DNA from: a virus
IMG/VR virus record: IMGVR_UViG_3300037235_000042
Location: 34,272-98,271 of that record
Direction: 5' to 3' (one strand)
DNA length: 64,000 nt
Shown: positions 29,109 to 34,122 of the stretch, piece by piece
Position numbering within the stretch: position 1 is the first letter of the stretch
Layout: each line of letters starts with the position of its first letter
Program-made: the position numbers and the translations under genes
Notes under the pieces: generated by a model
Told to the model about the DNA's origin: nothing
What the model saw: the letters and a program-made list of their open reading frames with translations, nothing else
The model's database searches: none

Positions 29109-30080
29109 CTAGCTCGTGACTCCAGTCATGATGAATCCCAACCTCGGGGCCGTCACCACGATATCTCCGCCGTAGATATTCTGTCCCGCCATATCGATAG
29201 AGTTCGGCAGCTCCTTGAAGCCAGTAAAGCCGAACGCGAACAACGGATCCTCGGACACGTAAGCGTCGATATAGCTGGTGTTCATGCCGAAGATATCTCC
29301 GGACGGGCAGTATTGATCGACCACCACGGCCATTCCGTTAAACAGGAAGGATTTGAACCCGGCTCCCTGGAGGTCAGGGTCTTCCTTGAACGTGCGTTGC
29401 AGAGGAAGCATCTTGGCCCAAAAGGAGTTGTAGATCGTCTGGGTCGTGGCAATCAGGTCGGGCTGGTTAGGTCCGAAGGTCGCTTGACCGTAGGCAGTTT
29501 GCAGAGAATTCAAAGTGAACGGCCCGGCGAGATTGATGTAGTAGCCGTTGATGCCGTTCGACGCGCCCGTGCCCACGGCTGAACGGGTGACGCCGCCGTA
29601 GGACGCGTAGTTCGTGCCATCGTCGTAACCAGCGAGGATACCGTCTAGCGCGATCTGACTAGACACCGTGCCTTGACCGTCGCGGTAGAAGTCCTGGATC
29701 AGCGCCTGCGCGAGGGATTGTTCCCCGTTGACCATCTTGGGCTCGATGAAGTTCATGACCGCTTCCGGGCCACGGTTCAGAGGGAGGGCGGTGCGCTGGA
29801 TCGTTATATTGCTGTAATAATATTTGGGATTGAAGAACATCGCCGTCTGGGTCTGGACGTAGGAAATGTCGAACACGCCGCCCGGAGGAAACGGCCCGGC
29901 CTTCAACGGAGCGTACTGAAAGGGGACTTGGATCTGCAAGCCACCTTCAAAGGGCTTGGACATCTTGCCGCCCTTCCAGACTTTGACGAAGACTGGGCTA
30001 ACCTTAAAGTACGCGTCGACCATTTCATTGGACACGTAGTTGACAGTTACGGCGGAGATGTCCCCATAAGTGAGCGCCAT
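29109..30080 (-). CDS. Major capsid protein
   Basis: 323 aa. Composition and segment order fit an HK97-fold capsid subunit: N-terminal helix (ALTYGDISAVTVNYVSNEM), an E-loop-like beta hairpin (about 45-110), a spine-helix region (FIEPKMVNGEQSLAQALIQD, about 115-135), and a C-terminal beta domain (about 235-323). It follows the scaffold and precedes decoration genes, the canonical order. Start preceded by AGAGG and overlapping the stop of a homing endonuclease gene (TGATG). Confidence 0.8.
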   Translation of the reverse strand: MALTYGDISAVTVNYVSNEMVDAYFKVSPVFVKVWKGGKMSKPFEGGLQIQVPFQYAPLKAGPFPPGGVFDISYVQTQTAMFFNPKYYYSNITIQRTALPLNRGPEAVMNFIEPKMVNGEQSLAQALIQDFYRDGQGTVSSQIALDGILAGYDDGTNYASYGGVTRSAVGTGASNGINGYYINLAGPFTLNSLQTAYGQATFGPNQPDLIATTQTIYNSFWAKMLPLQRTFKEDPDLQGAGFKSFLFNGMAVVVDQYCPSGDIFGMNTSYIDAYVSEDPLFAFGFTGFKELPNSIDMAGQNIYGGDIVVTAPRLGFIMTGVTS

Positions 30081-30619
30081 CAGTTTATCCTCTTATCTCG
30101 ATCAACCTCTGACACGACTACCGCGTCAGACGGAAGATGCGGAGAATTTATTGCACGCAATTTATTTCGTAAATCCTCGTGTGCTTGAAGCTCTACAATC
30201 GAAATCTTTTTACCCTGCGATCCTTTAACCTTCAGCCGCATGAACGCCAGACCAATTTCAGCCTGTTCTCGTTTCATTATGAAATACGGCAAGCAATGTT
30301 CCAAGATCACGACCGCTCGCGTGTTGAACATCCGCCACGATTGGCAAACCTTGTTGCTCCGATAACTGGTAACTGCATTCTTGATCAGGTAAACAGCACC
30401 ACTAAAATTGTTCTGTAGCCACTCATGTAAACGAGGGTCAGTCCCAGAAACGATGACCTCCAGGTGGTATTGGAGATTGGTATAGCCCTTACGCTTACTA
30501 CGAGTGATTGAGATACAACCTTCTCCATCGATGAAGGCAGCTAAACGTGCCCAGTTTAGTTCAGACACTAAGGCGACCTTAGCTTCGAAATCTTCGCGAG
30601 ACGTTAGAGGTCTAGCCAT
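30080..30619 (-). CDS. LAGLIDADG homing endonuclease (free-standing)
   Basis: 179 aa. One LAGLIDADG motif is visible (about residues 26-35, LAAFIDGEGCISI), followed by the usual Tyr/Arg-rich beta sheet and a helix (REQAEIGLAFMRLK). A single motif suggests a homodimer or a degenerate second motif. It sits exactly between scaffold and capsid genes with start/stop overlaps on both sides (TAATG and TGATG), so it is not in an intron and does not interrupt either gene. Likely a selfish element cutting homologous sites in related phages. Confidence 0.85.
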   Translation of the reverse strand: MARPLTSREDFEAKVALVSELNWARLAAFIDGEGCISITRSKRKGYTNLQYHLEVIVSGTDPRLHEWLQNNFSGAVYLIKNAVTSYRSNKVCQSWRMFNTRAVVILEHCLPYFIMKREQAEIGLAFMRLKVKGSQGKKISIVELQAHEDLRNKLRAINSPHLPSDAVVVSEVDRDKRIN

Positions 30620-31392
30620 TAGGCCGCTGCCCCTTCTCTTGCCCGTTCAAGCTGCGCCAACCTCTCGGCAGCCTCCATAGCCCTAGTCTTTCCGTTTCCA
30701 TCTCCGGTCGTCTTCTTCGCGTCGGCGATGATCTGCTGGGCCGGTGACATGGACGCAGTGTGCGTCTGGGCCGGGACGGACTGGGAAGAAGTGAATTGTT
30801 TCTTGGCTTCTTCGACTTCTTTCTTGACCCGAGCTTCGATTCGCTTTTCCGATACCCAGTTGTTGTAGGCCGCGCTGATCGACGGCCAGTTCGCACCGGA
30901 TTTCTTCTGCTCGTTGACGTATTCGTCGAACTTAGTCAGGTCGAGGGACTCACCGAACTCCTTCTCGTGGGTGGACTCGATCCGGCTTAACTCATGGGAC
31001 GTTTTCAGCGCTTTCGAGAGGATCTGTCCTTCGTATTCAGGGAGCTTGGAAGCAGGGATGAAATCCTTCTTCAAGGCGTCGAGCTTGCTGTCGAGCAGAG
31101 TGGTTAGCTCGGCTAGGATAGACTTGTTGTCCGGAGTTCCGTTGTTCCGCGCAGCAGCGGCCTGACGGTCAGCTTCGGCTTTGTCAGCCATGGCCTTGCG
31201 GTCTTTTTCCGCCTGTTCGACACGCGCCCGTTCAGCTGCGTCGTCTTGGTCGTCATCGCCTTCTTCGCCCGTGTAGAATCGGTACAGCCGCTCGCCTTCT
31301 TGGAGACGTTTGGCGACGTCGGATTTGGCGGCGATCTTCGCAGCGGCGTCCTTGCCGACTAGAGCTTCGAGTTCTTCCAGGATTGTTGCCAT
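30619..31392 (-). CDS. Capsid scaffolding protein
   Basis: 257 aa, highly charged and helical with Ala/Glu/Lys/Asp heptad-like stretches (about 45-90, 185-205, 230-257), no cysteines, and an acidic patch (GEEGDDDQDDAAERA). This composition plus placement between portal and major capsid protein is typical of scaffold proteins. No protease motif seen. Confidence 0.75.
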   Translation of the reverse strand: MATILEELEALVGKDAAAKIAAKSDVAKRLQEGERLYRFYTGEEGDDDQDDAAERARVEQAEKDRKAMADKAEADRQAAAARNNGTPDNKSILAELTTLLDSKLDALKKDFIPASKLPEYEGQILSKALKTSHELSRIESTHEKEFGESLDLTKFDEYVNEQKKSGANWPSISAAYNNWVSEKRIEARVKKEVEEAKKQFTSSQSVPAQTHTASMSPAQQIIADAKKTTGDGNGKTRAMEAAERLAQLERAREGAAA

Positions 31393-31441: not shown

Positions 31442-31816
31442 CTAAGCTGGAACCGGTTGTGTTTCCATTCCCCCACCGCCTGCGTCCGGAGCCGGTCCCT
31501 GACCTTCCATGGCAGTTGGCTGTGGAGCTTCCTTCGACGGACTACCAGCCCCGTCAGCCTTCACGAACTTATCGTTGTACTTCTGCAGGAGATCGGAGAA
31601 CTGTTGGATCATGTCTCCTTTTTCCTTGTCTTCCCCAGCGGCTTTACGCCATTTCTCAAACACCCGGAACAACGTCTTGACGATTTCAACTTCGTCCTCT
31701 CCGGCGGGCTTCTTCTCTCCCGGAGGCTTCGGGCCGCCACCGCCGCCCGGCGCACCCATCCCAGCCATGTTCGAGTAGAACGAAGGTGGCGCAGGCGGCT
31801 TGGTGGGCGGGGCCAT
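31442..31816 (-). CDS. Pro/Gly-rich hypothetical head-region protein
   Basis: 124 aa. Gly/Pro-rich N-terminus (MAPPTKPPAPPS; GAPGGGGGPKPPGEKKPAGED), a charged helix (about 45-82, FRVFEKWRKAAGEDKEKGD), and a Gly-rich tail. No family assigned. Its place between portal and scaffold suggests an assembly co-factor. Confidence 0.6.
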   Translation of the reverse strand: MAPPTKPPAPPSFYSNMAGMGAPGGGGGPKPPGEKKPAGEDEVEIVKTLFRVFEKWRKAAGEDKEKGDMIQQFSDLLQKYNDKFVKADGAGSPSKEAPQPTAMEGQGPAPDAGGGGMETQPVPA

Positions 31817-31822
31817 AGAAGG

Positions 31823-32044
31823 TTACTTAGGGCTAATCCCTTTCGACTTGTTCATGTGGCCCTCTGGGTAGCCGGTCTTAACATTGATCGGATCAGTTTC
31901 CTTCGGCCAGACAGTTCCTTCACGGAGGTCATGCCCGAACATGTGCATCTCGCCGCCCTGGATTGAAATAGTCGGCGGAGCGGAACCGAAAGACCGTTCC
32001 CGGACGTTCTCTTTCATCTTGGACTTGATTGGATCTTTGCTCAT
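31823..32044 (-). CDS. Hypothetical small protein
   Basis: 73 aa, charged, Met/Lys/Glu-rich, beginning MSKDPIKSKMKENVRERSFG. A good AGGAG site precedes the ATG. Located between a tiny basic peptide gene and the Pro/Gly-rich gene. Function unknown. Confidence 0.55.
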   Translation of the reverse strand: MSKDPIKSKMKENVRERSFGSAPPTISIQGGEMHMFGHDLREGTVWPKETDPINVKTGYPEGHMNKSKGISPK

Positions 32045-32069: not shown

Positions 32070-32103
32070 AGGAGAGGTTAAACTTGAAAGATCAACCTCT
32101 CCT
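32070..32103 (-). other. Inverted repeat in intergenic spacer
   Basis: Perfect 10-bp arms AGGAGAGGTT / AACCTCTCCT separated by 14 bases, between the tiny basic peptide gene and the 73-aa gene. No T-tract follows on either strand, so it is not a classical terminator; an mRNA-processing or stability hairpin is possible. Confidence 0.5.
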
Positions 32104-32122: not shown

Positions 32123-32173
32123 TTAGCGCTTGTGCTTACGTCCACCCTTTTTGCGACCCTTTTTACGTGCCAT
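32123..32173 (-). CDS. Sixteen-residue highly basic peptide
   Basis: The peptide MARKKGRKKGGRKHKR has 11 of 16 residues Lys, Arg or His and no acidic residue. A clear AAAGGAG site lies about 10 bases upstream of the ATG, and the gene stands alone in an otherwise non-coding 281-base spacer between portal and head genes. It resembles a DNA- or RNA-binding peptide. It is far below usual gene-calling limits, so it would be missed by most annotation. Function is not known. Confidence 0.5.
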   Translation of the reverse strand: MARKKGRKKGGRKHKR

Positions 32174-32240
32174 CGGGTTCACTCTCCTTTTCTGAGATGT
32201 GAGGGTTTAGAGTTATGAATCCCGGCCTCCACCGTGATAA

Positions 32241-32263
32241 TTAAGGACCGGTGAAATCCTTAA
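32241..32263 (-). other. Palindrome in leader of the head operon
   Basis: Perfect 7-bp arms TTAAGGA / TCCTTAA around a 9-base centre, between a candidate promoter and the basic-peptide gene. It could be an operator or leader hairpin; no T-tract follows. Confidence 0.4.
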
Positions 32264-32272
32264 TCGAGAATG

Positions 32273-32325: not shown

Positions 32326-34122
32326 CTACTTGCCTTTCCCGTGTTGGCCTTTGCCGGTTAGAGCGGCGTTGGCAGCGGCTACGAGTAACTTCAACCGGGC
32401 TTCTTCGAGCAGTTCTTCCTTATTGCGTTCGAAGTTGAAGTTAGGCTCAATCAACCGGAACAAACCACGAGAACTCAAATCGCCCATCTTCCGTAGCTGG
32501 AATGCGGCTTGGATCTTGTCGTTCTTTTCAATGGCCAAGGTTGATCCGGGCTTGATCACGAAGCTGAACTTGCGGACAAACTCTTCTGGCTTCATTCCTG
32601 AAGGTCGGGCTTCGCCGTAGATCGGGCGATAGTCGGCGGAGGTGATACCTTTGCCGCCCAGGATTTCGATGCGATGACCGACGGAGTAGAACTGGAGCAT
32701 GTTGCAAATGCCCATGTAGCCAGAGTCACGGAGGAAGCTTTCCAGAGCCCGAGATTGAACCCGGACTGGGGTAGAACGGGAATTCTTGATGGTTTCGAGC
32801 GCGTCTCCGCCGGGGATTTGCTTCTTGCCTAGAGCTTGGGTAATGGCTGAGCCGGTTGAAGTAGCTTCAGCTTCCTTTGAGATGTCCTGAAGATAGGTTA
32901 ACACGAACGCTGGGAGTTCACGGCGAGCTTGGAACTCGGGAGCTTTCGGAGAGTTGTTGTTGTATTTAATCTTTGCGCCGTAGGCTCCAGGGTCGAGCGC
33001 TTCCCAATCGGCGGGCGGGAACGCGGCTTTGGGCGCGATCAATGTAGGCTCGATGATCGAGATGATCATGTCGAGGATTCCGCCGTTCACCCGGTTCAGG
33101 ATGTTGTTCATCTGCATGATGGGCTTCATGGCAGGCATGCCCGAGAGCTTCCACGGAACGCGGAACGGGCGGAAGGTAGAGAAGGGGAATTTCGCGTGCC
33201 AGTAAGGGTTCGGAGAGTCAGCGAGCACGCAACCCCCAGCCGTGACGATCACGCGACCCCGAGGGTAGAGTTTCTCGCCAGGCTGAACGAGGTAGGACCA
33301 AGAGAATTTATCGTTCGGCACCCAGACCGGCTCGCTAGCTTCATTGACCGCATCATCGCGGAGCCAGAACTCTTTCAACATCGTCATTTGATATTGAGCA
33401 GAGATTGACTCGGGGACATCGCCTAGGAGTTGCTTGAGGACCGTGCCCATCCGGTTCCAGGATTCCTTGGAGACGTGTTTAGGCTTCATGACCTCGGAGC
33501 CGGAGAGGTCGGAGTATTGAGGATCAGGTTTTACCCGCCGGGCAGTTTCACCGTAGGTCCGCAACAAGTGTTCCAAGGTAACGACGTGGTAGTAGATCAG
33601 GCATTCGGCTTGCTGGAGATCCGTAGCCGCGCCGATGATCGCGAGGTTCCACGGGGCGATGGGGATCATTTGAATATCGCCCATGCCGCCGTTCAGGGAA
33701 GAGTTCCACTGAAGCTTGGCGTAACCGGTGTGGAGAAGGCCATAGGTAACGATGTCTTGGAGTGTGGCTTCGAAGTCGGAACGGAGAGCCCAATGGACAG
33801 CGAGCTGATTGAGCATTTCCTCGAACTCGTTGAAGTCGCCTAGGGAGTTGAACAGTTTGACTTGGAAGTCTAGCGCGAGGTCGGTTAACAGGCCGACGTT
33901 CTCCCAGAAATGCTTGTGGACCTTGTTAACCACCGGACGGGAACGAGCCCGGCGCATTTTCTCCGTCCATTGCTTTCCTTCCAAGTAATCCATGAGCTTC
34001 ATGGTGTCGCGGATTTCTCTCTCGCGATCTTTGTCCTGCATGGATTGCTGGAACAGGGATTCGGTCCACTGGATGACGGATTCTTCGAATTCCAGAGGCG
34101 AAGTTGGGATAAGCGCGGGCAT
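32326..34122 (-). CDS. Portal protein
   Basis: 598 aa, within the usual range for podovirus portals. Recognisable pieces: an N-terminal helical segment (LMDYLEGKQWTEKMRR), a conserved-looking FPFSTFRPFRVPWKLSG region (about residue 313), and a central helix near 370-440 (DISKEAEATSTGSAITQALG). Gene order TerS-TerL-portal-scaffold-capsid supports the call. The upstream 40 bases are pyrimidine-rich and lack a Shine-Dalgarno stretch. Confidence 0.8.
   Translation of the reverse strand: MPALIPTSPLEFEESVIQWTESLFQQSMQDKDREREIRDTMKLMDYLEGKQWTEKMRRARSRPVVNKVHKHFWENVGLLTDLALDFQVKLFNSLGDFNEFEEMLNQLAVHWALRSDFEATLQDIVTYGLLHTGYAKLQWNSSLNGGMGDIQMIPIAPWNLAIIGAATDLQQAECLIYYHVVTLEHLLRTYGETARRVKPDPQYSDLSGSEVMKPKHVSKESWNRMGTVLKQLLGDVPESISAQYQMTMLKEFWLRDDAVNEASEPVWVPNDKFSWSYLVQPGEKLYPRGRVIVTAGGCVLADSPNPYWHAKFPFSTFRPFRVPWKLSGMPAMKPIMQMNNILNRVNGGILDMIISIIEPTLIAPKAAFPPADWEALDPGAYGAKIKYNNNSPKAPEFQARRELPAFVLTYLQDISKEAEATSTGSAITQALGKKQIPGGDALETIKNSRSTPVRVQSRALESFLRDSGYMGICNMLQFYSVGHRIEILGGKGITSADYRPIYGEARPSGMKPEEFVRKFSFVIKPGSTLAIEKNDKIQAAFQLRKMGDLSSRGLFRLIEPNFNFERNKEELLEEARLKLLVAAANAALTGKGQHGKGK

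What the first reader, a model, noticed from the sequence alone, without database searches (positions are those of the whole stretch)
32123..32173. Sixteen-residue highly basic peptide gene between portal and scaffold
MARKKGRKKGGRKHKR with a strong AAAGGAG site occupies a non-coding island flanked by two inverted repeats and a promoter candidate inside an otherwise densely packed operon. Such a charge density suggests nucleic-acid condensation, scaffold binding or a regulatory leader peptide.
Basis: partly seen in the sequence, partly recalled or inferred. Interest (0 to 1): 0.75.

Follow-up and report, generated by a model that had tools for sequence, protein, structure and literature searches.

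The report
Conserved tiny cationic-peptide gene in phages
A gene of only 16 codons that makes an almost purely positively charged peptide is conserved just ahead of the capsid genes across a large group of uncultured soil phages, always between a folded RNA leader and a hairpin, and it probably helps build or fill the phage head.

Summary
MARKKGRKKGGRKHKR is encoded on the minus strand at 32123-32173 behind AAAGGAG. All 31 assessable relatives with portal identity of 35% or more carry an 11-29 codon Lys/Arg/Gly ORF in the same slot, as do many at 30-35%. Shuffles give such an ORF in 10 of 6,200 cases; the real loci give 31 of 31. Substitution is concentrated at third codon positions, and charge (+7 to +13) is kept while Lys and Arg swap.

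The ORF sits in an unreported RNA frame. Upstream are structured leaders with covarying stems, in several classes, without Rfam match. Between its stop and the next gene every locus has a perfect hairpin of unrelated sequence and no T-run. One leader class alone, searched through all of IMG/VR, hit 17 contigs: all this locus, all with the micro-gene.

Best reading: a real, probably strongly expressed, disordered polycation made with the capsid genes, acting like a protamine or phiX174 J in head filling or assembly. That function is inferred. Rivals are a peptide that binds its own leader RNA, and a regulatory leader peptide. The micro-gene matches no Pfam, PHROG, NCBIfam or PDB entry. New variant of a known kind.

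The parts
32123..32173 (-). micro-gene, MARKKGRKKGGRKHKR, net charge +10
   Evidence: conserved in relatives; pN/pS 0.44 and codon-position differences 0.30/0.24/0.56
32184..32190 (-). Shine-Dalgarno AAAGGAG, 10 nt before the ATG
   Evidence: AAAGGAG-type SD also in most relatives
32221..32236 (-). leader hairpin CACGG-TGGAGG-CCGGG (loop TGNAGG class; one A-G mismatch in the window's stem)
   Evidence: covariation across 10 distinct sequences: 94% paired, score 0.818 against 0.247 in shuffles
32240..32264 (-). upstream leader hairpin ATTAAGGA/TCCTTAAT
   Evidence: sequence; a stem of different sequence precedes the loop hairpin in L015 and L023
32108..32120 (-). small hairpin TCCGC-TAA-GCGGA just after the stop codon
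   Evidence: sequence; fold
32070..32103 (-). 12-bp hairpin AGGAGAGGTTGA/TTAACCTCTCCT between micro-gene and p73, no T-run
   Evidence: a hairpin at this position in all 31 loci, 29 with p<=0.05 against shuffles
31823..32044 (-). p73, small protein of unknown function, next gene after the micro-gene in most relatives
   Evidence: tblastn; alignment; no Pfam, PHROG or NCBIfam match
32326..34122 (-). portal protein gene (upstream neighbour)
   Evidence: PHROG portal, E 1.2e-14
31442..31816 (-). p124, proline-rich small protein of unknown function
   Evidence: tblastn
30619..31392 (-). presumed scaffolding protein, acidic, all-helical
   Evidence: position before capsid gene; net -7; model pLDDT 82; no fold match
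29109..30080 (-). major capsid protein gene
   Evidence: PHROG major head protein, E 6.7e-27

Best explanation
It is a genuine protein-coding micro-gene, the first cistron of the capsid transcription unit. It makes a disordered, almost purely cationic peptide. Shown: conservation of start, frame, SD, slot and charge; coding-type substitution; flanking conserved RNA structures. Inferred: that the leader starts its own transcript, that the 5' structure and the 3' hairpin give the micro-gene a separate and high level of expression, and that the peptide works as a polycation in head assembly. On this view it neutralises part of the packaged DNA or bridges DNA and the acidic scaffold, as phiX174 J or a protamine does.
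For: 31 of 31 loci with portal identity >=35% carry the ORF: 30 found automatically plus L020, whose copy lies beyond the search window (L020). Real 31/31 against 10/6,200 shuffles. Third-position bias, pN/pS 0.44. Length 11-29, net charge +7 to +13, Lys and Arg interchangeable, under 10% hydrophobic residues. Arg codons CGC/CGT make up 79% in the micro-genes against 51% in the window's structural genes. Distant relatives fill the same slot with larger basic proteins: a DUF6496 protein with a basic tail in L074/L080, a 42-aa protein in L085, KPFGK-type proteins in L094 and Tunturi_1. That argues the slot encodes a protein with a job. Opposite-strand ORFs lie between portal and leader in L008, L014, L017, L020 and L032, about 300-370 nt before the micro-ATG, so the unit probably has its own promoter.
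Against: No expression or virion data exist. No consensus promoter was found in the window. Packaged cationic peptides of this size are not established in tailed dsDNA phages; PMC7096446 finds that tailed phages do not follow the charge relation seen in small viruses. The conserved leader RNAs and hairpin are more than a plain structural gene needs. Most relatives below 30% portal identity lack a stand-alone micro-ORF.
Confidence: 0.5

Rival explanations
1. RNA-binding autoregulator: the arginine-rich peptide binds the structured leader of its own mRNA (as Tat binds TAR or ribosomal proteins bind their leaders) and sets expression of the capsid operon.
For: A structured, covarying leader lies right before the micro-gene, and a search for the core of one leader class found only this locus, in 17 contigs. 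In class F, conserved CATTCCGGGG can pair with CCCGGAAAGG over the SD, an alternative to the local hairpin. The SD is partly paired in most leaders.
Against: Leader classes A and B differ strongly while their peptides are nearly identical. The peptide lacks any fixed recognition pattern beyond charge. The downstream hairpin is not explained.
Confidence: 0.22
2. Regulatory leader peptide: translation of the Lys/Arg run, not the product, controls p73 and the capsid genes through the downstream hairpin (attenuation or translational coupling).
For: Short first ORF followed by a conserved hairpin in every locus. Precedent: speF expression in Salmonella is controlled through leader regulatory elements that respond to arginine (PMC6386406).
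Against: No T-run after the hairpin in any of the 31 loci, so no intrinsic attenuator. Lys and Arg interchange freely, lengths vary from 11 to 29, no C-terminal stall residue, common codons. In distant relatives the slot holds 42-72 aa proteins.
Confidence: 0.15
3. Assembly glue: the peptide binds the acidic scaffold or portal and nucleates proheads, without being packaged.
For: It always lies between portal and scaffold genes; the presumed scaffold is acidic and helical.
Against: No direct evidence. The scaffold's net charge is modest, -1 to -8 in most loci and -14 to -16 in some.
Confidence: 0.1
4. Chance ORF inside a conserved structured RNA: the nucleotide sequence is conserved, not the peptide.
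For: The region is rich in conserved RNA structure.
Against: Third positions differ at 0.56 against 0.30 and 0.24. The ORF occurs with unrelated leader classes and hairpin sequences. A search by SD-plus-peptide pattern through IMG/VR returned only 12 contigs, eight with this locus and four distant ones with the ORF downstream of terminase or portal genes.
Confidence: 0.02

Closest known systems
Microviridae DNA-packaging protein J (phiX174)
   Same: Very short, extremely basic, made with the capsid genes; would work by neutralising genome charge.
   Different: J serves ssDNA T=1 capsids and (own knowledge) has a hydrophobic C-terminal part that binds the coat protein; here there is no hydrophobic tail and the virus is a tailed phage with terminase and portal.
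DUF6496 (PF20106) proteins
   Same: In L074/L080 a DUF6496 protein with a basic tail occupies the same slot; in Synechococcus phage S-CBS4 one lies between portal and capsid genes.
   Different: The micro-peptides have no DUF6496 domain; the window's own virus carries a DUF6496 ORF elsewhere, G000:17445-17582.
Tunturiibacter phage Tunturi_1 slot genes
   Same: Podophage of Acidobacteriota with the order portal, small basic ORFs, proline-rich protein, further protein, capsid; an unannotated 22-codon Lys-rich ORF (MAKESKKEMKKEELKKKKSGKK) with an SD.
   Different: Capsid identity only 26%; the peptide is Lys/Glu-rich; no hairpin after it.
Arginine-rich-motif RNA-binding peptides (lambda N, HIV Tat)
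   Same: Arg/Lys-rich stretch of 15-20 residues next to structured RNA (own knowledge for the known cases).
   Different: Those are parts of larger proteins; binding not tested here.
Transcription-attenuation leader peptides
   Same: Short ORF followed by a hairpin ahead of an operon.
   Different: No T-run terminator, no fixed regulatory codons.

Membership tests
Microviridae J protein | short, strongly basic peptide | tested here: met
   11-29 aa, net +7 to +13
Microviridae J protein | hydrophobic C-terminal part for coat-protein binding | tested here: not met
   C-termini are basic; hydrophobic residues below 10%
Microviridae J protein | present in the mature virion | not testable with these tools
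   needs virion peptide mass spectrometry
DUF6496 (PF20106) | match to the Pfam model | tested here: not met
Transcription attenuator leader | intrinsic terminator (hairpin plus T-run) after the leader ORF | tested here: not met
   hairpin in 31/31, at most 4 T in the next 8 and no T-run; window scan 0 terminators
Transcription attenuator leader | run of codons for one regulated amino acid | tested here: not met
   Lys and Arg exchange, common codons
ARM peptide with cognate RNA (N/boxB, Tat/TAR type) | specific binding to the structured RNA | not testable with these tools
   needs binding assay
Known structured RNA (Rfam 15) | score above gathering threshold | tested here: not met
   0 matches in 12 loci; no meaningful weak hits
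Any PHROG family | HMM match of the micro-peptide | tested here: not met
   E<=1; short queries are insensitive

The most novel reading that the evidence does not exclude
A self-contained RNA-peptide module of tailed phages: a set of previously undescribed leader RNAs recognised by the 11-29 residue peptide that they precede, which thereby couples capsid-operon expression to its own role in head filling. It would be among the smallest autoregulatory gene products known.
Probability: 0.2. Interest if true: 0.88.

Novelty: new variant of a known kind. Interest (0 to 1): 0.66.

Why it matters
An 11-29 codon gene kept with its slot, charge and flanking RNA structures while the neighbouring portal drifts to about 30% identity is one of the smallest conserved genes in a phage capsid operon, and no annotation used here lists it. 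If the peptide is packaged, tailed dsDNA phages also use protamine-like counter-ions, which bears on how they balance DNA charge. If it binds its leader, it is a minimal RNA-peptide switch. Either way the short-ORF length cut-off hides a likely functional gene in many soil phages.

Tried and rejected
Near-identity DNA search and portal tblastn in named phages gave nothing. My first micro-ORF pattern found nothing because the SD-to-ATG spacing was fixed wrongly; the corrected one worked. Rfam: no family. RNAalifold on class F was inconclusive, with only one compensatory pair. p73 structure prediction was poor, pLDDT 63. Presumed scaffold: no fold match. DUF3008-like basic proteins (family name from memory) beside the portal of BUCT555 were followed but are a different family, and their match lies in larger structural proteins in jumbo phages. 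Tunturi_3 (97.6 kb, similar size) has no such ORF in its portal gap. Of the distant pattern hits, L121/L125 MARRRRHGKKR is in frame with a 72-codon ORF and may be its C-terminus, so it is not counted as a stand-alone micro-gene. The few hairpins in control gaps (3 of 15 and 0 of 10) show that the spacer hairpin is not a general property of these intergenic regions.

Full report
What is there. The minus strand of the window encodes MARKKGRKKGGRKHKR at 32173-32123, behind AAAGGAG. It lies between a portal gene (PHROG) and p73, with p124, a presumed scaffold, an HNH endonuclease and the major capsid gene downstream. The virus record is 98 kb. Within the 64 kb, this is the only SD-led ORF of 15-30 codons with net charge of at least 7 on either strand, and shuffled local sequence produces one in 2 of 3,000 trials.

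Conservation. A capsid-protein scan gave 14 loci, more followed from an alignment and an Acidobacteria MAG contig, and a portal alignment gave 76 loci down to 22% identity. The slot between portal and p73 or scaffold holds a basic micro-ORF in every assessable locus with portal identity of 35% or more: 24 of 25 automatically plus L020, whose copy lies 1.87 kb downstream, and 6 of 6 at 35-45%. At 30-35% it is stand-alone in 7 of 16; in L074 and L080 the flagged ORF is the tail of a DUF6496 protein. Examples are MARRKGRGKKRHGGRKGKR, MARGRKRRGKKGRKHGRK, MRKSHKGKKGGRKHKRGSKRA and MFETKRGKGRKKGGRKHGR. A blind scan of all IMG/VR for SD plus MARxxxRGKKR returned 12 contigs. Eight were known members. 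The other four were distant phages with the ORF downstream of terminase or portal genes: L122 MARRKHRGKKRK, followed by a hairpin and a small ORF reading MPGSMGEKTFDEEI; L127 MARRHRRGKKR, followed by an ORF rich in Ala and Pro; and L121/L125. My own estimate of chance matches for that pattern is well below one.

Coding, not just conserved RNA. Differences by codon position are 0.30, 0.24 and 0.56, and pN/pS is 0.44. Across 35 distinct peptides Lys is 28%, Arg 26%, Gly 18%, acidic 2%; net charge is 7 to 13, median 11. Lys and Arg replace each other. Arg codons are mostly CGC and CGT; AGA and AGG are nearly absent.

The RNA frame. From the stop of the micro-gene to the start of the next gene, all 31 loci tested carry a stem of 6-18 perfect pairs (G-T counted). 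The stem sequence is unrelated between classes, starts 17-44 nt after the stop and ends 19-63 nt before the next start. 29 of 31 have p<=0.05 against dinucleotide shuffles, against 3 of 15 and 0 of 10 in two control gaps. None is followed by a T-run. Upstream, the leader falls into classes. In the window, L004, L015, L023, L061 and L043-L053 there is a hairpin with loop TGNAGG, in most followed by an A-rich stretch and CC; 94% of cells pair, with a covariation score of 0.818 against 0.247 in shuffles. In class A (L005, L009, L010, L014, L020) a 6-bp stem pairs in all five with four doubly changed pairs. The stems were chosen by eye, so the counts carry some selection. Classes D and B show similar variable stems by eye only. 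Rfam has no match. Searching IMG/VR for the core of class F alone gave 17 contigs; every one is this locus and every one has the micro-gene.

Transcription unit. In L008, L014, L017, L020 and L032 an opposite-strand ORF sits between portal and leader, about 300-370 nt before the micro-ATG, and L083 has a T-run terminator just upstream of its leader. This suggests, without proving it, that leader, micro-gene, p73, p124, scaffold and capsid form their own unit. No consensus promoter was found in the window.

The slot in distant relatives. Where the micro-ORF is missing, several slots hold larger basic proteins: the 42-aa MKEHEEKKEERKEEKKEERKEKGKRHGKREGKRHEGRSSGRR in L085, a DUF6496 protein with basic tail in L074 and L080, KPFGK-type proteins in L094 and Tunturi_1. 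Tunturi_1 also has an unannotated Lys-rich 22-codon ORF. In L085 and Tunturi_1 the following spacer has no strong hairpin. A slot that keeps a small basic product, whatever its length, points to the product rather than to the act of translation.

Mechanism. I judge a working polycation made with the capsid genes most likely (0.5): a peptide of charge about +11 that neutralises DNA in the head, or bridges DNA and scaffold, as phiX174 J or protamines do. The leader and hairpin would then give it an expression level of its own. The leading rival (0.22) is that it binds its own leader; class F has a competing pairing over the SD and most leaders partly pair the SD, but classes A and B have different leaders and nearly the same peptide. 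A codon-sensing leader peptide (0.15) is disfavoured by Lys/Arg exchange, common codons and the missing T-run.

Novelty. No Pfam, NCBIfam, PHROG or PDB sequence matches the micro-peptides, and no paper found describes them. The short length limits what these searches can see. Catalogues of phage and microbial small genes exist (PMC11323111, PMC11364881), and the sequence could be listed in one without a function. The kind (small basic nucleic-acid-binding viral peptide) is known; this lineage, size, slot and RNA frame are not.

Noticed in passing
window 31823-32044 and homologues: p73, a 56-83 aa protein with a conserved SFG...GG.MH.FGH...VWP...KTGYP core, follows the micro-gene in most relatives and matches no family; AlphaFold gives no fold (pLDDT 63).
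   Followed up: partly
window 30080-30619: HNH endonuclease gene inserted between scaffold and capsid genes, also at this place in L008, L011, L013, L015, L017, L021 and L022 and absent in others.
   Followed up: no
L014:4970-6280, L017:4870-5747, L020:2042-3909, L032:6998-7964: The gap between portal and leader is an insertion hot spot for opposite-strand ORFs, some HNH-like or methylase-like by eye.
   Followed up: partly
L018:3400-4451: The portal gene is split after residue 97 by about 1 kb of inserted DNA; intron, intein or homing gene not resolved.
   Followed up: no
G000:C1:17445-17582 (outside the window): The window's virus also has a DUF6496 ORF (87 aa) far from the capsid genes.
   Followed up: no
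L013:12336-12467: A second Lys/Arg-rich small ORF (MPRPDDDMMMTPKETRAEKKRMGMKGKRKGKRGKGKRKVSSRR) downstream in the same locus.
   Followed up: no
L025:5736-5804 (Tunturiibacter phage Tunturi_1): Unannotated 22-codon Lys/Glu-rich ORF with a strong SD in the homologous slot of an isolated phage, which makes experiments possible.
   Followed up: partly
L103-L118 leaders: Class F leader core AGACCTCCGGTATCCATTCCGGGGAT is nearly invariant over phages whose portal is about 33% identical to the window's; a further hairpin-like stretch precedes it.
   Followed up: partly
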